The notes under the pieces are model-generated. The model was not told the DNA's origin and ran no database searches. It saw only the letters and a list, made by a program, of their open reading frames with translations. Both the position numbers and the translations under genes were made by a program. From Promethearchaeota archaeon (GTDB taxonomy: Archaea > Asgardarchaeota > Lokiarchaeia > Sigyniarchaeales > SOKP01), in the NCBI GenBank assembly GCA_019058015.1, contig JAHLWH010000279.1:1-39821 (forward strand): a stretch of DNA of 39,821 nucleotides, given 5' to 3'. How positions within the stretch are numbered: the stretch's first letter is position 1; every line of letters starts with the position of its first letter. This document shows, piece after piece, positions 6,690-39,352 of this stretch.

Positions 6690-8129
6690 TTAAAAAATAA
6701 TTCCGTCCGTTCGTCCGCTTAGAGGCTCAGAATGGAGAATAATAACATGGAGATTTTCAATTTTAATATTTTTTCGGATTTTTTGTTCTATATTCGTAAG
6801 ATAACCGTGAACAAGAGAAATATTCAACGATCCTTCAAAAAATATATGTAATTCAAGTATATAATTTTCACCAGTGGTAAAAAATTCAAATCCATGATAA
6901 CCTTTGACGTATGGACAATCTTTTAAAATAGATTCGATCAATTCTTTTATTTCCTGTATTTTCTGAGGGTTTACCTCTAACTCTGCAATTTGAATAAAAG
7001 AATATTGTCTAACCAGAGGTTTAGCTTCAATATGGGTTGTAATTCTAGTCAAAAATGGTGCCCGATTTTTTAAAACTTTTTCAAATTCTGAAGATGTTTC
7101 ATGAGCTTTATTGAGATTAAGTTTATCATCAACAACTAATGTCATGGAAAGATAATTTTTATCTTTTAAAGTAAAAAGGGCATAATCTTTAACATCGATG
7201 ATACCAGGAAATTCTAAGATCATTGAAGATATTAAGTTAATGATATTCTCGATTAATGATCCTTCCCCAGCAACGGGATTCATCTCAATGATACATTTCA
7301 AATCGTAATTAGGAAAAAATTTTTTAGCCATTTCATTAATAGCTATATTTATTTCATGGGCGTGGATAAGGGAAATATGATCTTCTACTAATAGACCAAC
7401 TTCTAAAAATAATTCCTTACCGATTGAACGTATGCGTAAATCTTCAACAGCATTGATATGCTCTAAATTAAAAATTTTTAGGCGTATTTCTTCTATATCT
7501 TGGTAATTAAATGGATTTGTATCTGAAATCTCTTTTATACTCTTCTTGGATAATTTCAGAGCACTTAAAATAATCCAGAGAGAAAGAGCGATACTGAATA
7601 ATGGATCAGTAAATAAGATACCAAATATCACAAATAAAAAATTTACCAATACAAAAATTGAACGTATTGAGTCTTGGAACAAGTTTAATCCCTGAATCTC
7701 CAAAATAAGACTCATACGACGTCTACCCTGCCAGATGAGAATTCGAGAAAATATTAAATTCACTGAGAAAGAAATGATTGTTATAATTAAACCTATATCT
7801 GGATTAGAAGGCAAAAAAGTTTCCTCAATAAAGATTTGAATTGTGAAAAAGATCAATAAACCATATAAATTTATTAAGATGATACCTTGAAGTAATGCTC
7901 CAATTGGCTCAATTTTAGCATGTCCATACATATGTTCGTAATCAGGAGGTTTTGAACTACGGAATAAACAATAAATCGTCAAAGAAACAAACCCTATATC
8001 CGTTATTGTATCCAATGTTTCGGATAATAAAGCTAAACTATTTGTTAGAATCACTCCAGATATTTTTAATGTAGATTGAAATAAAATAATAATAAGTGAA
8101 GCAAATCCAAACTTAATTTTAATCTCCAT
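6690..8129 (-). CDS. Cation diffusion facilitator transporter with extended C-terminal region
   Basis: N-terminal CDF membrane domain (LLSETLDTITDIGF; YEHMYGHAKIEPIGALLQG) followed by three consecutive ZT_dimer-like segments. Confidence 0.85.
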   Translation of the reverse strand: MEIKIKFGFASLIIILFQSTLKISGVILTNSLALLSETLDTITDIGFVSLTIYCLFRSSKPPDYEHMYGHAKIEPIGALLQGIILINLYGLLIFFTIQIFIEETFLPSNPDIGLIITIISFSVNLIFSRILIWQGRRRMSLILEIQGLNLFQDSIRSIFVLVNFLFVIFGILFTDPLFSIALSLWIILSALKLSKKSIKEISDTNPFNYQDIEEIRLKIFNLEHINAVEDLRIRSIGKELFLEVGLLVEDHISLIHAHEINIAINEMAKKFFPNYDLKCIIEMNPVAGEGSLIENIINLISSMILEFPGIIDVKDYALFTLKDKNYLSMTLVVDDKLNLNKAHETSSEFEKVLKNRAPFLTRITTHIEAKPLVRQYSFIQIAELEVNPQKIQEIKELIESILKDCPYVKGYHGFEFFTTGENYILELHIFFEGSLNISLVHGYLTNIEQKIRKNIKIENLHVIILHSEPLSGRTDGIIF

Positions 8130-8278
8130 ATAAGCTTATAGAATTAATTACTTATTTTAATCTAATCTATTCTCCTAAAACCGTCTTTATAATTTTGAAA
8201 TTTTATTCCTAAATTTTCATGCAAAGTAATATTGAGATGATATACCTCTTTTTGAATTAAAGTTGTTCAAACCAAGTT

Positions 8279-8440
8279 ATGGTTGAACCAGTTAAGATTG
8301 TTGAGGATGATATCTCGAAGGATTTAGATCATGCAATTGCTTCGAATATATTCAAGAAATTATATCAAGCAATAAAAGAAAATGATGAAGAGACTATTTG
8401 GAATCTCTCTAAAATCATAACGAGATATCGGTTTAGATAA
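8279..8440 (+). CDS. Small ORF (53 aa), unknown
   Basis: MVEPVKIVEDDISKDLDHAIASNIFKKLYQAIKENDEETIWNLSKIITRYRFR; balanced charged/hydrophobic composition, below the ORF-track size cutoff. Confidence 0.35.
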   Translation: MVEPVKIVEDDISKDLDHAIASNIFKKLYQAIKENDEETIWNLSKIITRYRFR

Positions 8441-13670: not shown

Positions 13671-14354
13671 TTATTTATTATTTGATTTTTTAGTAAAGTT
13701 TAGTTGATAAGAAAAAAAATTTCCAAATTTTTCTTTTATCTCAAATCCTGATTCTTCTGCCCAGCGAATTTCGGTCTTTCTTCGGGGATAATCCGGATCT
13801 GGAAGGATTTCACAGAGAGATACTAATCCATCGGGTTTTAGTATTCTATTACAGTCGCGTAGAACTCTAATTGGATCAGGAATTTCGGGTAAACATGTAT
13901 TGGCAAAAACCCTATCAATACTTTTATCTTCAAAGGGAAAGTTATAGGCATCTCCAACTATCGGAATAATGTTAGAGATTTCTTCCTTTTCAATTCGTTT
14001 TTTTAAAGATTCTATTACGGATTCTTGGATATCAAGGGCGTATACTTTTCCATTGGGTATAACTTTCTTTGCTACCGCTTTGGTATAAGATCCCTTACCT
14101 GGACCAATCTCAACGACTATCATTCCAGCTTCAAGATGCATTCGCTCAGCAATTACTTTAGGTTTTTGTATGAATCTCCGCCAAGGATTATCAATTAAAC
14201 GGGTTGCAAATGCTGGAATTGGAAATTTATGATATCTACGAATAATTCTTAAAATTATCATCACAAAAACGAAAAATATTAAAAAAATAATCATAGTAAC
14301 CAAGAAAATCCATTTAAATAAAAGCCACAAATCAATCATCATATTCTTCACCAA
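13671..14354 (-). CDS. Membrane-anchored class I SAM-dependent methyltransferase
   Basis: N-terminal hydrophobic segment; VVEIGPGKGSYTKAVAKKVIPNGKVYALDIQ. Confidence 0.8.
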   Translation of the reverse strand: MVKNMMIDLWLLFKWIFLVTMIIFLIFFVFVMIILRIIRRYHKFPIPAFATRLIDNPWRRFIQKPKVIAERMHLEAGMIVVEIGPGKGSYTKAVAKKVIPNGKVYALDIQESVIESLKKRIEKEEISNIIPIVGDAYNFPFEDKSIDRVFANTCLPEIPDPIRVLRDCNRILKPDGLVSLCEILPDPDYPRRKTEIRWAEESGFEIKEKFGNFFSYQLNFTKKSNNK

Positions 14355-14491
14355 CCCAGATGATGCCTATTAATTTAAAAGTTTCATATTTATTTTTATT
14401 TTTTCAATTTCAAACTATTTATCGAATCTAAAAAAATATATTTATTTAAGTTAAAACAAAGAATCTTCTATTAATAATAGAGTTGATATAA

Positions 14492-15868
14492 ATGAATACC
14501 GATCAAATATTAAAAGATTTGCAAATCATTGTAGGTAGAGAATTTGCAACCAATAGCCCTGAAGATCTCTATATTTATTCCCAAGATCCTGGAGCTTCTT
14601 TACCTCGCCCCGTTGATTTTGTTGTAATGCCTAAAACAACCGAGGAAGTTCAAAAAATTGTAAAATTAGCTAACGAGGAAAAAATACCTTTGGTTCCCAT
14701 GGGCGGTGGACTGACGCTTAGTGGATTAATCATTCCAGTAAAGGGTGGTATTGTATTAGATATGAAGAGAATGGATCAAGTAATTGAAATAAATGAATTA
14801 AGCCGGTATGCCCTCATTGAACCTGGAGTTTCTACAGGACAATTGCTTGCATATTTAAATGAGCATCATCCTGATCTGCAACCTGCAATCCCTGACGCCC
14901 CTCCTTCTGCAACTATTGCTGGCAATGTATTAATTCATGGATCAGGCTATTTATCACAGAAATATGGAGACCACGGTGCAATAGTTAATGGATTGGAAGT
15001 TGTTTTGGCAAGTGGTGAAGTGGTTAAACTTGGATCTTGTGCAGTTTCCGATTATTGGTTTGCAAGAGGACCCATCCCTGATTTAGTAGGATTATTTCTA
15101 AGTTCATTTGGAACTATGGGAATCGTAACAAAACTTTCGGTTCAAATATTTCCAAAACCGAAATTTAGGGAAATCGTGTTTGGATTGATGAAAGATGAAG
15201 AAAATATTCCAAATCTTCTATTAGAAATTACAACTAAGGAGTTCATTGAAGATGTAATCCTTGGTAAACAAGACAAGCCCGAGTGGATGAAAGGATATAT
15301 CTTTTTTATGGTCTATATTACGGGAGATAGTCAAGAAGATATTGATGCTAAAATAAAGATACTAAAAAAAATATATCGTAAAAATGGAGCGAGATATATG
15401 AAGGCAACTCAAAAAATGATAGATCTTTATATAGAAAAGCCAATATTTGCATCAGGGGCTGCAGATTTCCGAAAAGGAGGTGGTTTTGAATATGTTGGTG
15501 CTAACATGCCATTAGAAAAAATTCCTGAAGCATAGCGTAGAGGGGCTGAAATTTCAAGAAAATATGGGATACCTCCTACATTAGGTTCTAGACTTATTGG
15601 ACAGACTCATAATATCGTAATGTTCTTTTCTTATTCTTTCAATAGAGCTGATCCAGACGACATGCAGAATGCAAGAAATGCACTTGAAGAAACAAATCAT
15701 TTAGCATTAGAGCTTGGTGGCATTCCTTGGAAAGGTGAATTGAGTGCACAGAAACTAACTCTTCAAAAAATGGATCCCAATTATAAAAAAATGTTTTTTA
15801 ATATTCGCCAGATGTTAGATCCAAATGATATTATGAATCCAGGAAATTGGAGTGAGGAGGAGAATTAA
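14492..15868 (+). CDS. FAD-linked oxidase (GlcD / D-lactate dehydrogenase-like) interrupted by an in-frame TAG at 15533-15535
   Basis: ORFs 14492-15535 and 15620-15868 are in the same frame (offset 1128 nt); the intervening codons read RRGAEISRKYGIPPTLGSRLIGQTHNIV with no other stop. PMGGGLTLSGLIIPVKGGIVLDMKRM FAD-binding motif. Confidence 0.85.
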
Positions 15869-17036
15869 AATGGCTTTAGATGATGTTAAACATATAATAC
15901 ATAGATGTTTTAGGTGTGGATATTGTAAATTTACCCATTCTTATTCCGAATTTAATTGTCCCAGTTATAATAAGCATCGATTTGAGACATACAGCGCAGG
16001 TGGTCGGATTTGGCTCATTTTTGGTCTAATGAATAATGAACTTCAATGGAGTGATAATTTAGCTAATATTCTATATGCATGTAGTACGTGTGGAAATTGT
16101 GTGGAAAATTGCAGGTTTGTAAAATTCAATGAATTTTGGGTGGATATTATTGAAGCAGCCAGAGCCGAAGCGGTTAAAAACGGTTTTTGTCCTGAAAAGC
16201 AGAAAAATTTATTGGAACGCACTACGAACCCAGAAATGTTTAATCCTTACGCCGAACCAAATTCAGATAATGAAGAGTTAAAAAAGGAATATAATTTACC
16301 GGATAAAGCAGAATGGGTCTATTTTATTGGGTGCACATCAAATTATCGTCAAAAAAATTTAAGAGATTCTACTCTAAGATTTCTTAAAAAAGCAAAAATT
16401 GATTTTACCTTAATCGATGAATATTGTTGTTGCAGCCCAATTATAAGAACCGGACAAATTAGTCCCGTAAAGGATTTTATGAATTATAATGTTGGAAAAA
16501 TTAAAGAAGTAGGAGCTACTAAAGTAATTACTTCTTGTGCTGGGTGTTATCGAACATTAAAGAATGATTTTGAGAAATTTGGAGTCGAATACGATTTTAA
16601 ACTATATCATACAGCTGAATTAGTTAAACAACTTTTAGATGAAGGGAAATTAAAATTCAAATCAAATTATGATAAAACTGTAACTTATCATGATCCTTGC
16701 CATTTAGGTAGGCACTCTGGTATATATGAGATTCCTAGAGAAGTTTATAAGAAGATTCCGGGTATTAATTTTGTTGAAATGAAGAGAAACAGAGAAAACG
16801 CATATTGTTGCGGAGCAGGAGGAGGCGTTAAAATTGGATTTCCCGACTGGGCTGTAGAAATTTCGAAGGAAAGATTAGAAGAAGCTAAAGAAACGGGAGC
16901 TACAGTTGTGTCTTCAACTTGTCCATTTTGCAGAACGAATTTATCTGATGCAAATGATAAGTTCGATTTGGGTTTTGAAGTAATAGATTTAATAGAGATT
17001 CTGGATAAGTTAGATCTGGAAATAATTGAAACTTAA
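15852..17036 (+). CDS. (Fe-S)-binding oxidoreductase with CCG domains (GlcF/HdrD-like); likely true start ATG 15870
   Basis: CFRCGYCK, CSTCGNCVENC, CCCSPIIRTGQ, HDPCHLGRHSGIYE, CCGAGGGVKIGFPD. Confidence 0.88.
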   Translation: MRRRIKMALDDVKHIIHRCFRCGYCKFTHSYSEFNCPSYNKHRFETYSAGGRIWLIFGLMNNELQWSDNLANILYACSTCGNCVENCRFVKFNEFWVDIIEAARAEAVKNGFCPEKQKNLLERTTNPEMFNPYAEPNSDNEELKKEYNLPDKAEWVYFIGCTSNYRQKNLRDSTLRFLKKAKIDFTLIDEYCCCSPIIRTGQISPVKDFMNYNVGKIKEVGATKVITSCAGCYRTLKNDFEKFGVEYDFKLYHTAELVKQLLDEGKLKFKSNYDKTVTYHDPCHLGRHSGIYEIPREVYKKIPGINFVEMKRNRENAYCCGAGGGVKIGFPDWAVEISKERLEEAKETGATVVSSTCPFCRTNLSDANDKFDLGFEVIDLIEILDKLDLEIIET

Positions 17037-17216
17037 GTAATTTTTTTTTGTTTTTTATTTAAACTTATTAAAAAATCTTAGTTTTATAGACTAATTCTTT
17101 ATTAACAATTTTTTTAAAATTATTTATCGGTACTTGACTAAATGATCATATATAACGAAACTTTATGAACATATGCTTAACTTATATTTAATCAATAGGC
17201 ATATTAACTGAAGTAT

Positions 17217-17897: not shown

Positions 17898-18080
17898 TCA
17901 TTTTATAAGGCTAGAATGGTTTTTAGTTTGATGTATGTGGATAATGGCTTTTAAAATTAAAGAAATGAGAAAAATTGGCGTTAGCAAAATTATTGCATCA
18001 AAACTTCTAGGCCACCATAATTTGAAACTCCACTTAAAATTAAGGGGATAGAACCAGTTTATCCCTCCTGCCCAATCCAT
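17898..18080 (-). pseudogene. C-terminal fragment of a DUF457/YdjM-like membrane protein, homologous to the gene at 22990-23604
   Basis: MDWAGGINWFYPLNFKWSFKLWWPRSFDAIILLTPIFLISLILKAIIH vs WPWAGGINWLYPFDFAMFRWSFKLWWPGSYDAIILLAPVFIAFLILKWFIH. Confidence 0.8.
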
Positions 18081-18307
18081 TAAATCTTTAACAACCTATG
18101 AGCTGAGGTAGAAACCTAACCCTCCTTTATCTCCTCGTGGGATTAATATAATCTAACAAATTTATTCTAAAAAATATTTTTCATTCTAAGTCAAATAAAT
18201 TATGAATATACAGATGTAATTCAAAAAGTTCATTTCTTACAAAATAGGCTTTTTCTTTATAAAGGTTTAATTTAAAAGTCTCTCAAAAAAAAATTTAAAA
18301 TTATGAG

Positions 18308-18646
18308 GTGAATAGAAAGATGAACGGAAAAAATTCAATGGATGATATAGCAATATGGAAGGCAATGGTTGAGATTACTCAAATACCAGCCAAGCCACAA
18401 AAGGAAGATTCTTGGTTGTTTTACATTCCTAATCATAATTATCCTATTGGATTAGAAATTTTTGGAGACAACAAACTAACATGGAGGTATTTTACAAAAG
18501 CAGACTATTTAGAAGGCGCCAAAGCCATAGGTTATCAAATGTTGGGACTTCTAAGGCAGAAATTTCCAAGTATAAATGGAGTAGTAAAGATAAGACCAAT
18601 AAAGAATAGAGAAATCAAAGAAGATTTTTATAAAGATGATAGATAA
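18308..18646 (+). CDS. Small protein of unknown function, upstream of the ATPase
   Basis: DSWLFYIPNHNYPIGLEIFGDNKLTWRYFTKADYLEGAKAIGYQMLGLLRQKFPSINGVVKIRPIK; same strand and close to the ATPase gene. Confidence 0.65.
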   Translation: MNRKMNGKNSMDDIAIWKAMVEITQIPAKPQKEDSWLFYIPNHNYPIGLEIFGDNKLTWRYFTKADYLEGAKAIGYQMLGLLRQKFPSINGVVKIRPIKNREIKEDFYKDDR

Positions 18647-18751
18647 GAATATTTTCAATTAAAATTTCCAGCAATTCGTTATAGAAGTAAAATCAATTTA
18701 ATTCAGAATTTTATTAATCAATTCAATAATAAAAATAAAGGTATAATATAC

Positions 18752-20380
18752 TTGTCTCTTTTATGGGAACGTATAGTTTCAATAGACAAATCAATGATGA
18801 ATTATCTTAAAGAACATAAAATGGCTGATAATTTATTATTAAACGAGTTATCATTCTATCCAGATGGTGAAATTCCAAGAGACGTACAGAATTTCGCTAA
18901 TAATTATACAAATTTATGGGGCTTAGATGGTTATAAGCTGAAAATATTCTATGGTTATGAACTGCGTGATGCCGAATTAAAAAACATAGAAATTGAGAAT
19001 TCTCTGAAAAGTCTATGTATTGGTATTGAAAATGAGCGTTATCACAACGCTAAATCATCGTTTATTTATAAATATAATATGATTATGCAGTTATTAAGGG
19101 TACATCCATTTGAAAAAGATAAATTTAATGTAATTTCTCCAAAAATGGTGGATTTCAACTTTCCAAAAAATACTCCATTGCAGAAGGGATATGTTTTAGA
19201 AAACGAAAATATCGTTTATACTAATCCTTTAATGGATGGAATTGTAATATTAGGAAATCACGTATCAAATGGCGTTCCTACCGAACACGAAGGAGTTATT
19301 TTTCAAAAAATACTCAATCAACATTGCTTAATTTGTGGCACTGTAAATACAGGTAAAACACTTTTTAGCAGTTTTGTTATTAATCAAATAGAAAATTCAG
19401 GAGTACTGATTTTTAACTTATTCAAACCTAAACAAGAGGGAATGTATAATGTAGATGTAATTTATAGGTACGGAGATGAGAATTTTGAAACCCCCTACTG
19501 TCCACCGCTTATTAATCCTCTCAATAAAGAAAAAATAATTGAAGAGACAGGGGAAATGTATGTAGCTTGTTTAGGGTTAAGAGATGTATTTGAGGAAATA
19601 ATATATTCGGTAAAACAATTCTATCTCGAATTAAAGTACGAATTGCCACAAGAAATTATGGAATTATTTGACGCTGTAAAGGAATATTTAATAGAAAATC
19701 CTTATGATAAAGAAGTCCAAACGAATTTTTTGACGGCATTTGAGAATAGAATTAAACCGCTTAGGAGAAATAGAATTCTGCAAAATACGCTAAGGTTGAG
19801 GAAAACCATACCAAAATGGTATAAAGACCTACAAAATGGGAAGAAAGTCTATATAGATTTAAGTATGTGCAGTAAATACGAACAGAGATTTATAGTAAGT
19901 GCGATGTTTCAGTTAATCCGTACTTTATCTTCTGGTATCGAAACTAAGGATTTAAGAATGTTGATTGTAGTGGATGAAGCACATAGAATCTTCCACAAGC
20001 CGAGAACACAAAACCCAGACCACCACCGATTTATCAGACAAGAAATGTTTGAAATGGTATTTTCAGAAATGATGAAGGCACTTAGGAGTGCAGGAGTGGG
20101 TGTAATGGTCATTGACCATGAGTTATATCGCTTGTTTGAGTGCATTGTTGAATTAACGGGGTTAAAAATATTATTTCGCATGGAAGAACGAGGTGCTGAA
20201 CTTTTTTCGAAGAACAAAAATGAACAAACATTACTCACCCAACAAAAAAATAGAGAGGCGTTAATCCTAAATAGAACTACAAGCGAGAAATACCAAATAA
20301 AGACAATTGATATCGAATTATCTGAAAGAATTAAATTTAGAAAAACAAGAGAGAAAACAAAGGTGACCGTAATTGAGTGA
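18752..20380 (+). CDS. HerA/VirB4/TraG-like P-loop ATPase
   Basis: Walker A CGTVNTGKTLFS, Walker B RMLIVVDEAHRIF, DLSMCSKYEQRFIVSAMFQLI; TTG start. Confidence 0.8.
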   Translation: MSLLWERIVSIDKSMMNYLKEHKMADNLLLNELSFYPDGEIPRDVQNFANNYTNLWGLDGYKLKIFYGYELRDAELKNIEIENSLKSLCIGIENERYHNAKSSFIYKYNMIMQLLRVHPFEKDKFNVISPKMVDFNFPKNTPLQKGYVLENENIVYTNPLMDGIVILGNHVSNGVPTEHEGVIFQKILNQHCLICGTVNTGKTLFSSFVINQIENSGVLIFNLFKPKQEGMYNVDVIYRYGDENFETPYCPPLINPLNKEKIIEETGEMYVACLGLRDVFEEIIYSVKQFYLELKYELPQEIMELFDAVKEYLIENPYDKEVQTNFLTAFENRIKPLRRNRILQNTLRLRKTIPKWYKDLQNGKKVYIDLSMCSKYEQRFIVSAMFQLIRTLSSGIETKDLRMLIVVDEAHRIFHKPRTQNPDHHRFIRQEMFEMVFSEMMKALRSAGVGVMVIDHELYRLFECIVELTGLKILFRMEERGAELFSKNKNEQTLLTQQKNREALILNRTTSEKYQIKTIDIELSERIKFRKTREKTKVTVIE

Positions 20381-20954
20381 TTTAAAGAAGGAACGAAAAA
20401 AGGATACAAAACAAAAAAAGGAGATTTGGAAACCGAATGAAAATATTAATGAAGTTGATGAGCATAAAAAAATGGAGAGAATTATTGAACACGCTGAAAA
20501 AGCTGGGAAGAACGAATTTGATGAAAGAGAGAAAATGAGAAGGATTCTCGATAGAGCAAAAATTAGGTCAAGAGATTCTCAGAGCGATATTGAAATGGCA
20601 AAAAAAATTATGGGAGCAATGGACGAGAAATATCGCCCTGAATTTATTGAAAAACTAAGAACCGAATATGAAGAACGTAATGAAAAAGGAATGGTGTTTA
20701 CGTCTAACATTAAAGTAGAAAGTCCAGAAAGAAAGAGCGATATTCCAGATAAAAAAAATAATAAATCAGAACTAAATAAACCAACTGAGAAAAAAGATAA
20801 AATCAAAGAAAATGGAGAAAAAAAAAAAAAAAAGAACCAGATAGAGAAAAAAGAGAAATTCCGAAAGAGAAACAAAAAACACGAGACATCAATCGAGAAC
20901 AAGAAGAACAAAAAAAAGTTAAGGAAAAGGAAAATAACGAAAGTGAAAAAATAA
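20373..20954 (+). CDS. N-terminal portion of charged coiled-coil GIY-YIG protein (0 frame before an A16 run)
   Basis: Overlaps the ATPase stop; after the A-run at 20818-20833 the -1 frame stays open into the 21056-22954 ORF. Confidence 0.7.
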   Translation: MSDLKKERKKDTKQKKEIWKPNENINEVDEHKKMERIIEHAEKAGKNEFDEREKMRRILDRAKIRSRDSQSDIEMAKKIMGAMDEKYRPEFIEKLRTEYEERNEKGMVFTSNIKVESPERKSDIPDKKNNKSELNKPTEKKDKIKENGEKKKKKNQIEKKEKFRKRNKKHETSIENKKNKKKLRKRKITKVKK

Positions 20955-21055
20955 AGGAAAAAAAATCAAAAAATATAGAAACAAAAAAAAAGCAAGATAT
21001 TTCAAGAGAAAAAAAGAAAATTGGCGAATCCAAGAAAGAGATTGACAAAAAGAAG

Positions 21056-22954
21056 GTGGTGAAGGACTATTTAGAAAAGCACAAAGAACCTAAAGATATA
21101 ACAAATGATCTTAATGATTTAAAAAGACAACGAAACGAAAATAGTAATTTGATTGATTTTTGTCAAAAGAAATTAAAAGAGGGGAATTTTAACGGAATTA
21201 TTACGCGTGAAGGTCACGAGCAAAAATTAAAAGAATTAATAAAAAAAAATGAACAAATGGAAAAACAACTAAGGGAATTTAACGATAATTCTTCTCACTC
21301 AAAAAAATTAAATAATGAAAAATTAAAAGATAAAAGAGAAGTGATATTAGAAAAGAGAAATACCGAGCTCAAACAAAAACTAAAAAACGAAAATTTGAAA
21401 GAAGAAGAGCAAATTTCAAAGGAAAAGGCTAAAGAATTAGGAAGAAACCTTCCTAACCATGAGCATGAAAAAGAATCCTCTTCAGAAGTAAAGGAAAAAG
21501 AAAAAGTATCAGATGATAATAATAAAGATAAGGAAATGTTTCGAGACAATAATGCCAAAAGAGAATTTGATAGAACATTGATAAAAAATCACCTTGTTGA
21601 CATATTTTGCAGATCAATAAAAGATAATTTAGAGAATGTTGATAATCCAGAAGAATACATCAAGAAAAATCCAAAATTAAATTATGATTTAAAAAAAAAT
21701 TTAGAGAAGAATTTAGATATTCCAGATAAGGTTTTATCAAGGGTTCTTAGATATTCAAGTAAGTGTTTAGACGAAGACACTACAAAAGCGTTAGATAATG
21801 CCATTAATTTATATAATAGAGTATTAGAACGCCCTCATGGTTATATTTATTTGCTTAAAAACTTTAAAAACGAGAAAGTCTATGTCGGCAAAACTGAAAG
21901 GGATAAAGAAAAGAGATATCATAATGATCCTATTCTAGACAGATGGATCAGGCATAAGAAAAGGGCTGAAAAGTTAAAGAATAAAAGAGAAGCTAATCCA
22001 GAGAAAAAGTTTTATGGAACTCATCTAAAGAATTCCATCATTAAATATGGACAAAATGCATTTAATCTTAAACAAATCGATGTAGCATATAGTCCAAAAG
22101 AGCTTAATGTAAAGGAAAAATATTGGATTGGGGAATATGATTCAATGAACCATGAAAAAGGTTATAATATGAGCTCAGGTGGTGATGGCGGAAGGCAGAG
22201 ATTAGATGTGTTAAAAAAAATAAGCGATACAATGAAAAAGAAGTATCAAGACCCCAAATATCTAAAAGAGAGAAAAGAAGCATACAAAAAGCAAAGCGAT
22301 ACAATGAAAAAGAAACATCAAGACCCTGAGTATAGAAAAAATTATATTAAAGCGAGGGAAACCCCAGAGTTCAAAAAAAAGCAGAAAGAAATAATCGAGA
22401 AATTAAACAAAGCATTGAAAAAGAAATATCAAGACCCTAAGTTTCAGAAAAAGCGGAAAAAATTAATAAGCGAAGGAATGAAAAAGAAGTATCAAGACCC
22501 TAAATATCTAGAAGAGAGAAAAGAAGTATACAAAAAGCAAAGCGATATAATGAAAAAGAAGCATCAAGACCCAGAGTTTAAAATGAAGTTAGAGAAAACG
22601 AGGAAAACCCCAGAGTATAAAGAAAAGCGAAAAAAAGCCAATAAGAAACACAGCGATATTATGAAAAAGAAACATCAAGATCCCGAATATAGAAAAAATT
22701 ATATGAAAGCAAGGGAAAACCCAGAGTACAAAAAAAGGTTGAGTAGGGCGCTTAGAAAAGAGATAGGTGACATAAAAATCTTCTTAATCGATATAAAAAG
22801 TGGAATGCTGAAAAAAGAGTTAATTCAAAAATACAATATGTCCTCTAAAACTATTAATAGAAGGATAAAAGAGATACTTGGTCGATATGGACCACAAAAC
22901 TTTTCAGAAGCGAAAAAATTTTTAGAAGACAAAGACATCGATGAAATTTTATAA
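21056..22954 (+). CDS. GIY-YIG nuclease-domain protein with NUMOD-like repeats and C-terminal HTH; open reading extends upstream to ~20834
   Basis: HGYIYLLKNFKNEKVYVGKTERD...YGTHLKNSIIKYGQNAFN...KEKYWIGEYDSMNHEKGYNMSSGGDGG; repeats MKKKYQDPKY; LKKELIQKYNMSSKTINRRIKEILGRYG. Confidence 0.85.
   Translation: MVKDYLEKHKEPKDITNDLNDLKRQRNENSNLIDFCQKKLKEGNFNGIITREGHEQKLKELIKKNEQMEKQLREFNDNSSHSKKLNNEKLKDKREVILEKRNTELKQKLKNENLKEEEQISKEKAKELGRNLPNHEHEKESSSEVKEKEKVSDDNNKDKEMFRDNNAKREFDRTLIKNHLVDIFCRSIKDNLENVDNPEEYIKKNPKLNYDLKKNLEKNLDIPDKVLSRVLRYSSKCLDEDTTKALDNAINLYNRVLERPHGYIYLLKNFKNEKVYVGKTERDKEKRYHNDPILDRWIRHKKRAEKLKNKREANPEKKFYGTHLKNSIIKYGQNAFNLKQIDVAYSPKELNVKEKYWIGEYDSMNHEKGYNMSSGGDGGRQRLDVLKKISDTMKKKYQDPKYLKERKEAYKKQSDTMKKKHQDPEYRKNYIKARETPEFKKKQKEIIEKLNKALKKKYQDPKFQKKRKKLISEGMKKKYQDPKYLEERKEVYKKQSDIMKKKHQDPEFKMKLEKTRKTPEYKEKRKKANKKHSDIMKKKHQDPEYRKNYMKARENPEYKKRLSRALRKEIGDIKIFLIDIKSGMLKKELIQKYNMSSKTINRRIKEILGRYGPQNFSEAKKFLEDKDIDEIL
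22230..22740 (+). repeat. Tandem coding repeats (M/L)KKK(Y/H)QDP(K/E)(Y/F), six copies
   Basis: Copies: TMKKKYQDPKY, TMKKKHQDPEY, ALKKKYQDPKF, GMKKKYQDPKY, IMKKKHQDPEF, IMKKKHQDPEY. Confidence 0.85.
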
Positions 22955-22989
22955 CACCAGAAGTAATTACAATTACAATTTTATGGACG

Positions 22990-23604
22990 TTAGTTGCTTT
23001 TACTCTCTAAATTTCTAACCTTATATGAGTGGATAAACCATTTTAAAATCAAAAAGGCAATAAATACCGGAGCTAGTAAAATTATTGCATCATAACTTCC
23101 TGGCCACCATAACTTAAAACTCCATCGAAACATTGCAAAATCAAAGGGATAGAGCCAGTTTATCCCTCCTGCCCAGGGCCATAAACCCATATCGAGAAAT
23201 AAATGGAATAGACCACCTATAAAAAGTAGGAAGAAAGGACTCTTTATTTTTGTTTGCCAAATTGATTGAAGTTTAAGTAGTTTAAATTTAAAGCCATTTT
23301 CATTTAAATTAAATTGATGTTTAATTTCGACGGATTCTAATGGTTTAAGAGATTTCTCGAAAAAAATTGAGATGAAGCTTGCAAGAGCAAGAACACCAAT
23401 AATGGAATGAGAGGATTCATTTATAGGATAACTAATAAAATATGAAATTATTTCTAGATTAAGAAATTCTGTTATAAAAATAGGAAATCTTAAGAAATCC
23501 GGCATTAAATTTCCTATTAAAAAAATTATCTTTTTCTCCTTTTTAATTCCCAATATGTTGGATAAAATTGTTCCAAACATTATGTGAGCGATCCAATCTG
23601 GCAA
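22990..23604 (-). CDS. DUF457/YdjM-like membrane protein (predicted membrane-bound hydrolase family)
   Basis: MPDWIAHIMFGTILS, NLMPDFLRFPIF, HSIIGVLALASFI, GGLFHLFLDMGLWPWAGGINWLYPF. Confidence 0.75.
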   Translation of the reverse strand: MPDWIAHIMFGTILSNILGIKKEKKIIFLIGNLMPDFLRFPIFITEFLNLEIISYFISYPINESSHSIIGVLALASFISIFFEKSLKPLESVEIKHQFNLNENGFKFKLLKLQSIWQTKIKSPFFLLFIGGLFHLFLDMGLWPWAGGINWLYPFDFAMFRWSFKLWWPGSYDAIILLAPVFIAFLILKWFIHSYKVRNLESKSN

Positions 23605-23605
23605 A

Positions 23606-24157
23606 CTAAGAACCTCTATTCGATTTCTTTGGGCTGTTATGAATTAATTTCAATTTTTTAAAATCTATTTTGAAATAATAAAAAATTAAGGGAATTATTA
23701 TTACTAGTCCCCCTAATGAAAGAATAATTGTACGGATACTATGTATCTCCATAATATCCAAGCCAATAACAACGCCCTCGGAATTAAGAAGTGATATCCC
23801 CTTAATACAATAAATATTTCCTATCTTTATATTTGTGATATTAAATTTCTCGTGTCCTGACCAATTATGAAATTGGATAATGATTTGAATGTCATAAAAA
23901 TCGTCTCTAAATACAATGGATAGAAGATCAATTGATTCATTATAATTATAGTCGCTTATCTCTTGATTTATTACAATTTGCTCATTCTCTACTATATTTG
24001 CTCCATTGTAGAGCTCGTAAAGATCAATACAATAAGGATCTTTATTCCATTTAGTGGGAATTGGAGGATATAAAAATCCTAAAAATCCAAAAAAAATTGA
24101 TCCAATAATTATGATTCCAAAAATTAAAATTCTTTTTCTTGTCTTTTTCTTGTTCAT
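23606..24157 (-). CDS. Membrane protein with two TM helices and an extracytoplasmic domain, unknown
   Basis: N-terminal and C-terminal hydrophobic segments; abuts the 22990-23604 gene. Confidence 0.55.
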   Translation of the reverse strand: MNKKKTRKRILIFGIIIIGSIFFGFLGFLYPPIPTKWNKDPYCIDLYELYNGANIVENEQIVINQEISDYNYNESIDLLSIVFRDDFYDIQIIIQFHNWSGHEKFNITNIKIGNIYCIKGISLLNSEGVVIGLDIMEIHSIRTIILSLGGLVIIIPLIFYYFKIDFKKLKLIHNSPKKSNRGS

Positions 24158-24343
24158 TTATTGGTAATCGCTTTATTTACATAATAGTTCGTATATTTTT
24201 AATATTTGTTTGATATTTTTATTTTTTCAATTAAAAAAAAATCCTTAAACCTACAGTTTTCTAAATGGGGAAATTTATTCCTCAATCCTTTATAATCAAA
24301 ATTCAAACTTTTATATTAGAAACATATTAGTAGGTTTAAAAGT

Positions 24344-25021
24344 ATGAAAAAAAATAAAATGATTTTATTTGGTGTATTATTGTTTTTAATAATTTTTTCC
24401 ATCGATAGTACCCAAAATGTGATAGCAGATAACCAGAATACAGTTGATGTCAATGGAGACTCAACACAGATCCATTTAATGGCTCATAATAGAGTTAATT
24501 ATCGCTTTCGACAGAGAACACAATTAAGAATCAATTGTTCGGCTAATCTCGATTTAGATATATCGTGTGATTCCTTAAATATTGGGAATAAGATATTTGA
24601 GATTGAAATTAATTCAACTAAAGATCTTAAAATGAATATGACATGTACTGAGGAACAAGCCGAACTTGGACTCTTAAAGGGAGAAATACATCAAAACAGA
24701 AATCGGAATAGATTTCGCTATCAAGCAGGGTTTGTTGTAGCTTTAGAAGTTAATGGAAGCATTCAAGCGAAATTAAAATTGCAAGCTGAAAATGAATATA
24801 AACATGGCACTTGGGCTTATTATGATGAGGATTCACAAACATGGATTCCGGTGGAGACTGTTCTTGAAGATGGGTTTTTAGTGACTGAAACCAATCATTT
24901 TTCAACATGGACCATAATAAATCTTGAACAAGATTTCACAATTGCATGGATTATCGGATTAGGAATTGTAGCGGTTTTAGCTATAACAGGATTAATCATA
25001 TGGAAAAAGAAAAGAAAGTAA
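24344..25021 (+). CDS. Surface protein with signal peptide, ectodomain and C-terminal TM; ectodomain similar to 25120-26376
   Basis: MKKNKMILFGVLLFLIIFS...LDISCDSLNIGNKIFEIEINS...NRFRYQAGFVVALEVNGSIQAKLKL...IIGLGIVAVLAITGLIIWKKKRK. Confidence 0.7.
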   Translation: MKKNKMILFGVLLFLIIFSIDSTQNVIADNQNTVDVNGDSTQIHLMAHNRVNYRFRQRTQLRINCSANLDLDISCDSLNIGNKIFEIEINSTKDLKMNMTCTEEQAELGLLKGEIHQNRNRNRFRYQAGFVVALEVNGSIQAKLKLQAENEYKHGTWAYYDEDSQTWIPVETVLEDGFLVTETNHFSTWTIINLEQDFTIAWIIGLGIVAVLAITGLIIWKKKRK

Positions 25022-25119
25022 AACTAAGAAAATCTATATTAAATAATTTTTTTTTTAATTTATTCTGAATTTTTTATGAACTATTAAAAAAATATTGATT
25101 AAAAACAAATTGGACTAAT

Positions 25120-26376
25120 ATGGTTGGAAAACATCCCCAAAATGTTAAATCACAGGAGAAACTTATAAAAATCACTTTTTTAATTATATTTTTCATTTTA
25201 ATTCAAATCAATCTATCAATACTTCCAACTTTAGCTAAAAAGAAAAACATTACAGGTTTCTCAACTCATGATTTTCTCAATCCTAATGAATCAATTACAT
25301 ATTATTTTTCAAATGGGATTCAATTTGGAATTAATACAAATGTCAGTATAGATTTCGATATCCAATATGATAATAAAATTCAAAATCGGGAGATCTATAT
25401 AAAGATAAAAAATAATCAATCAATATCGTTTCAAATAAATACAAAGACTAATATGATGAATTTTGGATTATCTAAACAACCAGGTAATCCTAATTATAAA
25501 AATAATCGGTTTGAATATCGGTTTAATTGTATATATCAATTCATTTCAAATGATTCAATCCAAAATTTAACTATTCAATTTAATAAGACCTCAAATTTTG
25601 GATTAAATCCAAATAAGACATATTTTATCGCAGTTTTTGAGTTAAGTAATGAATCTTGGCAGATTATTCCAACAGAAGAATTAATTAATGAATTATCTTC
25701 TGAGAGTTATTTAGAAACAACTATTCTAAATCTTGAAGGAAATACTGAATATTATATTACACTTTATGAAGTTTCCATTTCTTCAGATATTTGGCCATGG
25801 ATCTTAATTATCGTTATCATTGTAGTTATAGCTACATTAGGTTTAGCTATCACAAAAAAAGATTATATCAATTACTTAAAAAATAGATTAATTAATATTG
25901 ATAAAGGAGCTCATCGATTAACCATAGAAGAGGTCTTAGAAAATGAAAATCGAAATAAAATAATAGATCTAATTTTATCTAACCCAGGGGTTCATTTTAA
26001 TGAATTACTACGACAAACTGGAATAGCTGCAGGAAATTTGGTTTGGCATTTAGATATCTTAGAAACTTATAAAATTATTGGAAAAAAAAGAATTGGAAAC
26101 TATATTGCATATTTTCCATATTATAATAAAAATCCTATTAGCAACATTGATTTAAAACTCCAAAAGAGTAAATTTACACTAGAGGTTCTAGAAATGATTG
26201 AAAGAAATCCTGGAATATATAATAATTTGATCACAAAAAAATTTCGAGTTGATCATAAAACAATACACTACCACTTGAAAAAACTATTCGATTTGGGGAT
26301 TATATATTCAGAAAAAATCGGAAGGAAAAAACAACTATTTCCAAATTTGGATTCAGAATATTATAATTCAAAATAA
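25120..26376 (+). CDS. Transmembrane protein with extracytoplasmic sensor-like domain and two C-terminal winged-helix domains
   Basis: TM at N-terminus and WPWILIIVIIVVIATLGLAI; then IIDLILSNPGVHFNELLRQTGIAAGNLVWHLDILETYKII and VLEMIERNPGIYNNLITKKFRVDHKTIHYHLKKLFDLGIIYSEKIGRKKQLFP. Confidence 0.8.
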   Translation: MVGKHPQNVKSQEKLIKITFLIIFFILIQINLSILPTLAKKKNITGFSTHDFLNPNESITYYFSNGIQFGINTNVSIDFDIQYDNKIQNREIYIKIKNNQSISFQINTKTNMMNFGLSKQPGNPNYKNNRFEYRFNCIYQFISNDSIQNLTIQFNKTSNFGLNPNKTYFIAVFELSNESWQIIPTEELINELSSESYLETTILNLEGNTEYYITLYEVSISSDIWPWILIIVIIVVIATLGLAITKKDYINYLKNRLINIDKGAHRLTIEEVLENENRNKIIDLILSNPGVHFNELLRQTGIAAGNLVWHLDILETYKIIGKKRIGNYIAYFPYYNKNPISNIDLKLQKSKFTLEVLEMIERNPGIYNNLITKKFRVDHKTIHYHLKKLFDLGIIYSEKIGRKKQLFPNLDSEYYNSK

Positions 26377-26550
26377 GATCTATTCATTTTTTATAAGAAA
26401 TAAATGGAAGAAATTTTAATTTAGTCTATTAAATTTTTATCCTCTAAAATCTCCACTTTAACTTGAAATCCTGGTCTACACTTTTTTTTGAATATAGATT
26501 TCATAATTCTAATATTTTAAGGAATTCTAGGTTATATAATCTAATAATTA

Positions 26551-26578
26551 TTTTTAAAAATTTTGGATTATTGTAAAA
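26551..26578 (+). promoter_or_regulatory. Promoter-like element shared with 28704-28731
   Basis: TTTTTAAAAATTTTGGATTATTGTAAAA immediately upstream of ATG 26583; differs at 2 positions from the copy upstream of 28741. Confidence 0.5.
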
Positions 26579-26582
26579 CCTA

Positions 26583-27803
26583 ATGCAAAAAGAAAAAAAT
26601 AATAGTTCTAATGGGTTTCAAGGGTCTTTTGAAAAGTTAGAAAAAATTAAATATCCAAATTTGTTTCCACTCTGGATTGCGATTTTCATCGATATTCTAG
26701 GATTTTCGATATTAATTCCATTTTTACCAATTTTCGTAGAAGTATTTGAAACTAATGAATTTATTATTGGTCTCCTCTTGGCAACAAATGCGATGTTTTC
26801 TTTTTTTTTTGCAATCATTTTGGGAAAATTAAGTGATAAATTTGGTCGAAGACCATTATTATTAATATCTCAGATTGGAACAATGATTGGATTTATAATG
26901 CTTGCTTTTTCAACATCTTTAGAAATGCTTTTTCTTTCACGTATTGTTGATGGAATTTTCGGAGGGAATTATCCTATTGCTAAAGCTATTATTAGCGATA
27001 TCGTACCTCCGAAAGATAGACCCATTCAAATGACGAATGTTGGGGTATGCCATGTTTTATCTTCACTTATTGGTCCTGGTCTAGGAGGAGTTTTATCAAT
27101 ATGGGGTATCATGGCACCTGGATTAGTTGCTGCGGGATTATCGCTATTCACAATTATTATAACCATCTTTTTCTTAAAAGAAACTTGGCCAAGACATAAT
27201 CGAGTGAAAAAAGAAAAAGATAAAGTAATAATTAAAATTAGAAAAAATAAAAATGCAATGTTTTTATTGACTCAATGGGGGTTCCACACGGTGTCTTTCA
27301 TTATATATGTATCTACTTTTTCATTATTTGCAGCTAGCGTTCTTGGTTTAGATGGATTTCAGATCGGAATGTTATTGATGCTCTCAGGAATATTTAGAGC
27401 AATTATAAGATTTACTCTTTTTAAGCCTACTCTAAATAAATTAGGTCTTAACAAAATGTTAAAACTTGGGTTAGGTATATTTACTGTTATATTTTTTCTC
27501 ATTGGGTTTACTCAATATTGGCAACAAGCTTTAATTTTATTATTATTTGTTCTCTTTGCAGCTTCTTGTACCAGGGGTACTCTCAGTAGTAAAATAACTC
27601 AATCGGTAACTCCTAAAGAACAAGGAAAAATAAATGGTTATTCCTCTGCTTTGGATAGTTTTGCTCAAATGATAGGACCTTTGCTTGGTGGTTTTATATT
27701 ATGGGCGTTTGAACCTTACTGGTTGGGAATTGCTATGTCCATATTCTCTCTTGTTGCATTTTTCATGGCATTTAAAAAATTAAACCTTAAAACAACCAAG
27801 TAA
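26583..27803 (+). CDS. MFS transporter (TetA-like)
   Basis: LGKLSDKFGRRPLLLISQIGTMIGF, SRIVDGIFGGNYPIAKAIISDIVPPKDR. Confidence 0.88.
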   Translation: MQKEKNNSSNGFQGSFEKLEKIKYPNLFPLWIAIFIDILGFSILIPFLPIFVEVFETNEFIIGLLLATNAMFSFFFAIILGKLSDKFGRRPLLLISQIGTMIGFIMLAFSTSLEMLFLSRIVDGIFGGNYPIAKAIISDIVPPKDRPIQMTNVGVCHVLSSLIGPGLGGVLSIWGIMAPGLVAAGLSLFTIIITIFFLKETWPRHNRVKKEKDKVIIKIRKNKNAMFLLTQWGFHTVSFIIYVSTFSLFAASVLGLDGFQIGMLLMLSGIFRAIIRFTLFKPTLNKLGLNKMLKLGLGIFTVIFFLIGFTQYWQQALILLLFVLFAASCTRGTLSSKITQSVTPKEQGKINGYSSALDSFAQMIGPLLGGFILWAFEPYWLGIAMSIFSLVAFFMAFKKLNLKTTK

Positions 27804-27826
27804 AGTTCAATTAATAAAAAAAAAGA

Positions 27827-28456
27827 CTATAGTTGAAGATCTTTATCTTCCAAAATCTCAACTGTTATATTTGGATTTTTATTTTTCAATATTTCCTTAA
27901 ATTGGCTTAAATCCTTACCCCAATTATGCATCGGAATTGCTATTTTAGGGTTAATATCAACCACAGCATCAGTAGATTCGTCAAAATCCATGGTGTAAGT
28001 TCCCCCACATGGAAGCATCGCAACATCAATATCTTTTAAGTCCTTCATTTCCGGAATTCTTTCTGTATCTCCGGCGTGATAAATTCTTTTTCCTTCTGCT
28101 TCAATTATTATACCTGCCCACCCTCTATTTTTTGGATGAGTACTCTTTTTGATTGTATATGCGGGAACAAGTTGTATCTTAACATCTTCTACCTCGAAAA
28201 TTTCTCCGAATTTAAGACCTTTTCCATTAAATTTTTTTAAATTACCTGATTCACTTTTCGGTCCAATTACAATTGTAGAATCTTTAGATATTTCTCTAAT
28301 CGATGCACCATCCATATGATCTCCATGAGAATGACTTGAAATGATAATATCTGCCTTTTCTAAGCCAGTAGGAATTTCATAAGGATCTAAATACATAACC
28401 TTACCAGATTTTGTTATAATTTGAAAGCATGCATGGGATATCCATTTTATCTTCAT
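27827..28456 (-). CDS. Metal-dependent hydrolase, UPF0173/MBL-fold
   Basis: IKWISHACFQI, ADIIISSHSHGDHMDG, IYHAGDTERIPEM, PCGGTYTMDFDE. Confidence 0.88.
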   Translation of the reverse strand: MKIKWISHACFQIITKSGKVMYLDPYEIPTGLEKADIIISSHSHGDHMDGASIREISKDSTIVIGPKSESGNLKKFNGKGLKFGEIFEVEDVKIQLVPAYTIKKSTHPKNRGWAGIIIEAEGKRIYHAGDTERIPEMKDLKDIDVAMLPCGGTYTMDFDESTDAVVDINPKIAIPMHNWGKDLSQFKEILKNKNPNITVEILEDKDLQL

Positions 28457-36523: not shown

Positions 36524-36673
36524 TATTTTGGGATAAATTTCCAAGGATCTTGTTTAACTAAATTCCAAGATTTTTCAGCATAATCCTGGATCATTCTGTG
36601 AATATTGAAATACGCAGCAGTTGCAATGGCATTTTTCATCCGCCAAAGCCACTCATCCTGGTCCATGTAAGTG
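36524..36673 (-). pseudogene. C-terminal fragment of an alpha-glucan (glycogen) phosphorylase-like protein, copy 1
   Basis: TYMDQDEWLWRMKNAIATAAYFNIHRMIQDYAEKSWNLVKQDPWKFIPK*; FNxHRMxxxYAE C-terminal signature; no upstream coding continuation. Confidence 0.75.
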
Positions 36674-39163: not shown

Positions 39164-39352
39164 CTAAATTGGGATATATTTCCAAGGATCTTGTCTAATT
39201 AAATTCCAGGATTTTTCTGCGTAATCGTTTATCATTCTGTGTGTATTAAAATATGTAGCTAAAGTGATTGTATTTTTCATTCTCCATGGCCACTCATCCT
39301 GGTCCATCCAGGTAGGAATAATTTCATTAATTATCCTGCAATTTTTGCACAA
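39164..39352 (-). pseudogene. C-terminal fragment of an alpha-glucan (glycogen) phosphorylase-like protein, copy 2
   Basis: IINEIIPTWMDQDEWPWRMKNTITLATYFNTHRMINDYAEKSWNLIRQDPWKYIPI*; homologous to copy 1 at 36524-36673. Confidence 0.75.

What the first reader, a model, noticed from the sequence alone, without database searches (positions are those of the whole stretch)
18308..22954. Candidate undescribed three-component cassette: small protein + HerA-like ATPase + coiled-coil GIY-YIG nuclease
Three same-strand genes, with the ATPase stop overlapping the next start (20373-20380), indicate coupled expression. HerA-family ATPases paired with nucleases are an established theme in DNA processing and anti-phage defence (HerA-NurA, HerA-Sir2). 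A GIY-YIG partner with a long charged spacer and a C-terminal HTH is a pairing I do not recognise. It could be a DNA-transfer/packaging module or a defence system.
Basis: inference. Interest (0 to 1): 0.72.

Follow-up and report, generated by a model that had tools for sequence, protein, structure and literature searches.

The report
Asgard homing element with HerA-type ATPase
The three supposed genes are really two damaged genes of a small DNA parasite of an archaeon (by gene content an Asgard archaeon) that inserted into the end of a host gene and supplied a substitute gene end; relatives pair the same ATPase with several unrelated DNA-cutting enzymes, a pairing I could not find described.

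Summary
The genes exist but the "three-component cassette" does not. The 112-aa "small protein" is the N-terminal domain of the ATPase, cut off by one in-frame TAA. The 193-aa and 632-aa ORFs are one GIY-YIG protein, split by a 1-base change in a 16-A run. So this is a two-gene module with two lesions.

It is a mobile insertion. Three same-genus genomes carry the same flanks without it. It lies inside the 3' end of a YdjM-like gene. The original 3' end is stranded on one side; a diverged replacement completes the gene on the other, followed by a co-conversion-like tract of about 0.7-0.9 kb. A second member inserted the same way into coaBC. This matches free-standing homing endonuclease elements known from fungal mitochondria.

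The ATPase family is restricted to one order-level group in this phylum. Relatives sit next to GIY-YIG, LAGLIDADG, HNH, PD-(D/E)XK or VSR-like nucleases. Tips are swapped on one scaffold: the window and a 97%-identical ATPase neighbour share 94% DNA to position 21463, then diverge completely.

Homing-type mobility is well supported. The ATPase's role (end processing or DNA transfer) is inferred. Defence is not supported, though several relatives lie beside defence genes.

The parts
17898..18074 (-). Displaced original 3' end of the YdjM-like host gene (ORF 17898-18080)
   Evidence: C-terminus ...TPIFLISLILKAIIHIHQTKNHSSLIK resembles the native gene of G001 ...TPIFLIFLILGTIIHIHKTKSHSSLIK; 87% DNA identity over 171 bp
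18054..18074 (.). Left copy of 21-bp junction core CCAGTTTATCCCTCCTGCCCA
   Evidence: identical to 23155-23175; part of the identity is expected because both are copies of the same gene
18075..23175 (.). Inserted mobile element, about 5.1 kb
   Evidence: absent from the orthologous locus of G001, G002 and G004, whose flanks are 92-96% identical
18320..20380 (+). HerA/FtsK-like ATPase gene, one frame broken by an in-frame TAA at 18644-18646
   Evidence: relatives are uninterrupted; dN/dS 0.22 against the G002 orthologue
18308..18646 (+). 'Small protein' of the finding: N-terminal ATPase domain
   Evidence: blastp 3e-10 to 2e-4 with the N-terminal domains of about 15 relatives, nearly all fused
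19337..19360 (+). Walker A, GTVNTGKT
   Evidence: G196, G201 and K202 invariant in 18 aligned sequences
19961..19987 (+). Walker B region LIVVDEAHR with D408 E409
   Evidence: D408 and E409 invariant in 18 aligned sequences
20373..22954 (+). Partner nuclease gene (scaffold + GIY-YIG tip), frameshifted at the A-run 20818-20833
   Evidence: L050 is open across the same region; one-base difference in the A-run
20373..21463 (+). Partner scaffold shared with G002 proteins that carry different C-terminal tips
   Evidence: 94% DNA identity to L050 and 91% to L097, both ending at window 21463
21836..22190 (+). GIY-YIG nuclease domain; I-TevI-type motifs GYIY, YVG, RWIRH, E and N present by eye
   Evidence: PHROGs homing endonuclease 4.4e-13; weak I-TevI alignment
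22200..22930 (+). Basic repeats and a C-terminal HTH-like segment, probable DNA-binding part
   Evidence: sequence; segment conserved in relatives; HTH_11 weak in L051
22990..23604 (-). Host YdjM-like membrane-protein gene, now a hybrid; 3' end (22990-23175) brought by the element
   Evidence: PF04307 1.7e-7; 22990-23073 does not align with the native 3' ends
23176..23900 (.). Co-conversion-like tract from a diverged donor
   Evidence: mostly 78-88% identity to three relatives, versus 92-100% beyond 24000 and mostly 90-100% on the left flank

Best explanation
A homing-type mobile element. Its partner protein is a free-standing homing endonuclease (here GIY-YIG) that cuts a site inside a host coding sequence. 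Repair from an element-bearing DNA copies in the whole element together with a diverged gene end that completes the host gene, leaving the original end stranded on the other side; the changed site should resist recutting. Shown from sequence: insertion, gene-end replacement, one-sided co-conversion-like tract, a nuclease domain with its motifs, and swapping of nuclease tips on a common scaffold. Inferred: that the nuclease makes the cut, and that the HerA-like ATPase acts on the same DNA, either pumping or resecting broken ends (like HerA-NurA) or moving the element DNA between cells in relatives with membrane parts. The window copy is probably inactive: nonsense in the ATPase, frameshift in the nuclease, unless these are assembly errors.
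For: Empty sites in three genomes. The displaced 3' end matches native genes while the replacement is diverged: window; coaBC 92-94% displaced versus 78-79% replaced. One-sided low-identity tract in both cases. A third element lies in the ribosomal-protein operon with a 66-bp repeat of the uS8 5' end. Homing-endonuclease domains in partners: GIY-YIG, LAGLIDADG, HNH, PD-(D/E)XK. Tip swap at 21463. GIY genes sit directly behind a thermosome gene in 12 loci, while eight genomes of one genus show a thermosome gene followed by other genes. ATPase dN/dS 0.22. Fungal mitochondrial mORFs have the same insertion anatomy (PMC3630166).
Against: No cleavage site or activity was tested. Only two insertions have clean empty sites, both in one genus. 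Some ATPases have no nuclease partner (L056, L059), and GIY genes also occur without the ATPase (L093, L094, L100), so the ATPase is dispensable for at least some copies. Several partners gave no nuclease hit (L063, L134, L136, L139, L065). The LAGLIDADG domains in L068 and L137 come with an intein-splicing domain, so they may belong to inteins inside the partner. Thermosome C-termini show no replacement.
Confidence: 0.75

Rival explanations
1. Anti-phage defence: the HerA-like ATPase and the nuclease form an effector complex, as in HerA-Sir2 or HerA-DUF4297.
For: PADLOC mad8 and HerA matches. In the GIY-linked ATPase clade, L059 lies beside Gabija GajA/GajB, L056 beside a methyltransferase, L062 beside a PtuA/AriA-like ATPase and L054 beside a BrxH-like helicase.
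Against: Partner domains are homing-endonuclease families; insertion with gene-end replacement is mobile-element behaviour; the window itself has no defence neighbours among those scanned. Mobile elements often land in defence islands.
Confidence: 0.13
2. Part of a conjugation-like DNA-transfer machine: a VirD4-like coupling ATPase with a second, possibly VirB4-like ATPase and membrane protein, with the nuclease as a relaxase-like or transported substrate.
For: Some ATPases carry 2-7 predicted membrane segments; others have an upstream 230-400-aa membrane gene and/or a ~1280-aa second ATPase with membrane segments (DUF87 0.008). TraD P-loop 0.016. Acidic D[FY]xP repeats in partners could be docking signals.
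Against: The window and the thermosome-linked loci have no membrane part; no relaxase or pilus genes recognised; all profile matches to transfer ATPases are sub-threshold.
Confidence: 0.25
3. Polymorphic-toxin-like antagonism: a common delivery scaffold with exchangeable nuclease tips.
For: Same scaffold with GIY-YIG, PDDEXK_5 or VSR-like tips within one genus, switching at one point.
Against: No immunity-type gene follows the tip in the window; tips are site-specific homing-type nucleases; gene-end replacement is not explained.
Confidence: 0.07
4. Chance neighbourhood or assembly artefact.
For: Metagenome assembly in 283 contigs; two lesions in the module.
Against: G002:C420 carries the same two genes with the same overlap at 94% DNA identity; linkage recurs in five further GIY loci.
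Confidence: 0.03

Closest known systems
Fungal mitochondrial mobile ORFs (Allomyces atp6; Glomus atp6, atp9, cox2, nad3), PMC3630166
   Same: Free-standing homing endonuclease (LAGLIDADG, or GIY-YIG in atp9) inserted in the 3' part of a gene, a foreign C-terminus completing the gene, the native C-terminus displaced
   Different: Archaeal chromosome; no ATPase in the fungal elements; much longer nuclease protein here
Phage T4-type free-standing homing endonucleases (I-TevI and Seg relatives)
   Same: GIY-YIG domain with DNA-binding repeats and HTH-like end; PHROGs homing-endonuclease matches
   Different: No HerA-type ATPase and no gene-end replacement in those I know (from memory)
HerA-NurA DNA end resection
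   Same: HerA-superfamily ATPase encoded next to a nuclease
   Different: The nuclease is not NurA; ATPase similarity is remote (HerA structure 4d2i E=0.007); mobile and lineage-specific
MADS Mad8 and HerA-linked defence ATPases (PADLOC)
   Same: Best-scoring known ATPase models (mad8 7e-13 window, 4e-17 L051)
   Different: No MADS gene set; partners are homing-type nucleases
Heimdallarchaeal HeimM2 and aloposons, PMC8813620
   Same: Asgard mobile elements, HeimM2 with a homing-endonuclease homologue beside a conserved gene
   Different: HeimM2: LRR peptide at the 16S rRNA/tRNA site; aloposons: giant proteins at tRNA sites; no HerA ATPase mentioned

Membership tests
Free-standing homing endonuclease element (mORF type) | Encodes a homing-endonuclease-family nuclease | tested here: met
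   PHROGs homing endonuclease 4.4e-13; GIY-YIG Pfam 1.5e-8 in relative L051
Free-standing homing endonuclease element (mORF type) | Empty allele exists in close relatives | tested here: met
   G001, G002, G004; coaBC empties in G000, G002, G004
Free-standing homing endonuclease element (mORF type) | Foreign gene end replaces a displaced native end | tested here: met
Free-standing homing endonuclease element (mORF type) | Co-conversion of flanking DNA | tested here: met
   one-sided low-identity tract in two insertions
Free-standing homing endonuclease element (mORF type) | Nuclease cuts the empty but not the occupied site | not testable with these tools
   needs purified protein
HerA-NurA | HerA family membership at curated cut-off | tested here: not met
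   DUF87 and HerA_C below gathering score
HerA-NurA | Adjacent NurA nuclease | tested here: not met
   no NurA hit in the partner
Conjugation coupling protein (VirD4/TraD) | Match at curated cut-off | tested here: not met
   TraD 13.6 bits against cut-off 366
Conjugation coupling protein (VirD4/TraD) | Membrane anchoring | tested here: inconclusive
   absent in the window; present in part of the family
Anti-phage defence system in PADLOC | Both genes match a defined system | tested here: not met
   ATPase weakly mad8/HerA; GIY protein none
Polymorphic toxin | Exchangeable C-terminal tips on a common scaffold | tested here: met
Polymorphic toxin | Immunity gene after the tip | tested here: not met
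   no short same-strand gene follows in the window; the next gene is the convergent host gene

The most novel reading that the evidence does not exclude
A natural 'home-and-rescue' gene drive of Asgard archaea: homing elements that carry their own membrane DNA pump (HerA/VirD4-like, sometimes with a second ATPase and membrane protein) and exchangeable site-specific nuclease tips, so that they both spread between cells and insert into important genes while restoring the gene end.
Probability: 0.25. Interest if true: 0.9.

Novelty: new variant of a known kind. Interest (0 to 1): 0.7.

Why it matters
Homing endonucleases normally travel alone or inside introns and inteins. Here one lineage-specific ATPase family is repeatedly coupled to several of the known homing-nuclease families, with tip exchange, in what appear by gene content to be Asgard archaea. 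The elements leave hybrid host genes (YdjM-like, coaBC, perhaps uS8), so they move gene ends between lineages. It also makes a direct test possible: what an ATPase adds to homing.

Tried and rejected
Three-component reading: rejected. Plasmid or phage origin: no convincing match in plasmids (two records, E 5e-3 and 6e-4) or phages. The genome contigs and viral-contig scans gave no answer and alignment A1 was too diverse, so organism names and viral relatives are missing. Flank-duplication search over all loci found only the window and L063 as clear cases (L142 is a weak 32% match). Thermosome 3'-end replacement was looked for and not found. G002's N-terminal ATPase part is not in its assembly, so the TAA could not be checked in an orthologue.

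Full report
What is in the window. The window is a whole contig of a 3.84-Mb assembly in 283 contigs (contig length). Four same-strand ORFs, 112, 542, 193 and 632 aa, lie at 18308-22954. They are two genes. Reading 18320 onward in one frame gives the 112-aa protein, one TAA (18644-18646), then EYFQLKFPAIRYRSKINLIQNFINQF... and the ATPase. A profile of 18 sequences matches 18332-20350 as one hit with one stop, and in nearly all relatives the 112-aa domain is fused. The 193- and 632-aa ORFs are separated by a 16-A run. The same-genus homologue L050 is open through it and differs by one base there. The G002 and window ATPases differ by 14 synonymous and 13 nonsynonymous changes over 489 codons, dN/dS 0.22, so the gene was under selection until recently.

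What the proteins are. The ATPase is HerA/FtsK-like: Walker A GTVNTGKT and Walker B DEAH are kept, PADLOC mad8 7e-13, HerA structure 4d2i E=0.007 from the family profile. It falls below Pfam and NCBIfam thresholds. The partner has a charged scaffold, a GIY-YIG domain (PHROGs homing endonuclease; I-TevI-like motifs), basic repeats and an HTH-like end.

It is an insertion. The flanks 14002-17042 and 23080-27900 lie 132 bp apart in G002 and about as close in G004, and overlap in G001, at 92-96% identity. The site is the 3' end of a YdjM-like gene (22990-23604, minus strand). The left fragment 17898-18080 carries the native C-terminus, as in G001; the gene now ends in a different sequence. Identity to the three relatives falls to mostly 78-88% over about 23000-23900 and returns to 92-100% beyond 24000. 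The left flank stays mostly at 90-100% up to the junction, with 86% in one 200-bp bin beside it. This is the pattern expected from gene conversion after a break, with a diverged donor.

It is not a single case. In G001 a relative (L063) sits in the 3' end of coaBC (Pfam DFP and flavoprotein). Empty alleles are in G000, G002 and G004. The displaced end is 92-94% and the replaced end 78-79% identical to native, with a low-identity tract of about 0.6 kb on the right only. In L134 an element interrupts uS14-uS8 (my reading of the ribosomal genes) and is bounded by a 66-bp repeat of the uS8 5' end. GIY genes stand directly behind a thermosome gene in 12 loci of several genera, five of them followed by the ATPase; eight genomes of one genus show the thermosome gene followed by other genes instead.

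The family. With the profile, 52 of 231 genomes of the phylum match; strong matches are confined to the window's order and the other hits are weak. I annotated about 54 loci. In most of them the ATPase has a same-strand neighbour, usually within about 150 bp or overlapping, which is often a very long protein. Its domain varies: GIY-YIG, LAGLIDADG with or without an intein-splicing domain, HNH, PDDEXK_5, HNH/VSR-like. Several long partners gave no hit. Within the window's own genus the same scaffold carries GIY-YIG (window), PDDEXK_5 (L097) and, in C75, a protein followed by a VSR-like frame. DNA identity between the window and L050 or L097 stops at the same base, 21463. A tree of ATPases places the window apart from the thermosome-linked GIY clade, so GIY pairing probably arose at least twice (no support values were examined). 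Many relatives have N-terminal membrane helices or an upstream membrane gene, some a second large ATPase; the window lacks these.

How it most likely works. The nuclease cuts a site in a host gene; repair from element DNA inserts the element and its version of the gene end. The ATPase role is inferred: end processing at the cut, or transfer of DNA. The same insertion anatomy is documented for fungal mitochondrial mobile ORFs (PMC3630166), where that paper states the endonuclease was shown biochemically to be responsible for mobility. PMC6083498 lists six homing-nuclease families; four are met here by profile matches and a fifth (VSR/EDxHD-like) is my reading of the sequence. Searches of open-access papers found no HerA-type ATPase described with homing endonucleases in Asgard archaea; subscription papers are not covered.

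Limits. Genome names were not available; 'Asgard' rests on gene content (thermosome, Ras-like small GTPases, TFIIB-like genes), not on a marker tree. Clean empty sites exist for two insertions in one genus. No activity is shown. The lesions may be real or assembly errors.

Noticed in passing
L019:8636-8840 (own genome C174): A 206-bp remnant, 93% identical to window 18250-18454 (upstream TATA-like region plus ATPase start), in unrelated surroundings.
   Followed up: partly
L017:10500-12746 and 95-2972 (own genome C75): Two further scaffold proteins without ATPase in the thermosome region: a broken GIY-YIG copy and one followed by a VSR-like nuclease frame.
   Followed up: partly
L051:4822-5326 and 7842-8346: The 3' end of the ATPase gene is duplicated (95%) about 3 kb downstream with a small-GTPase gene between; possibly another gene-end-replacing insertion.
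   Followed up: no
L132:439-5457: ATPase partner of 1673 aa contains a TFIIB repeat (2e-19) and HTH-like segments.
   Followed up: no
L132:7539-11375, L136, L127, L135, L066, L124: About 1280-aa proteins with membrane segments and a weak HerA central-domain match upstream of the ATPase; possibly VirB4-like.
   Followed up: partly
L064-L067, L117, L137, L138 upstream gene: 230-280-aa membrane protein with an HExxH-type motif (HELCH, HELSH, HEIIH), no Pfam match.
   Followed up: partly
partners in L053, L065, L066, L119, L144: Repeated acidic D[FY]xP motifs, above shuffled expectation; possible docking motif.
   Followed up: partly
window 36528-36666 and 39169-39307: 141-bp direct repeat at 82% identity, unrelated to this element.
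   Followed up: no
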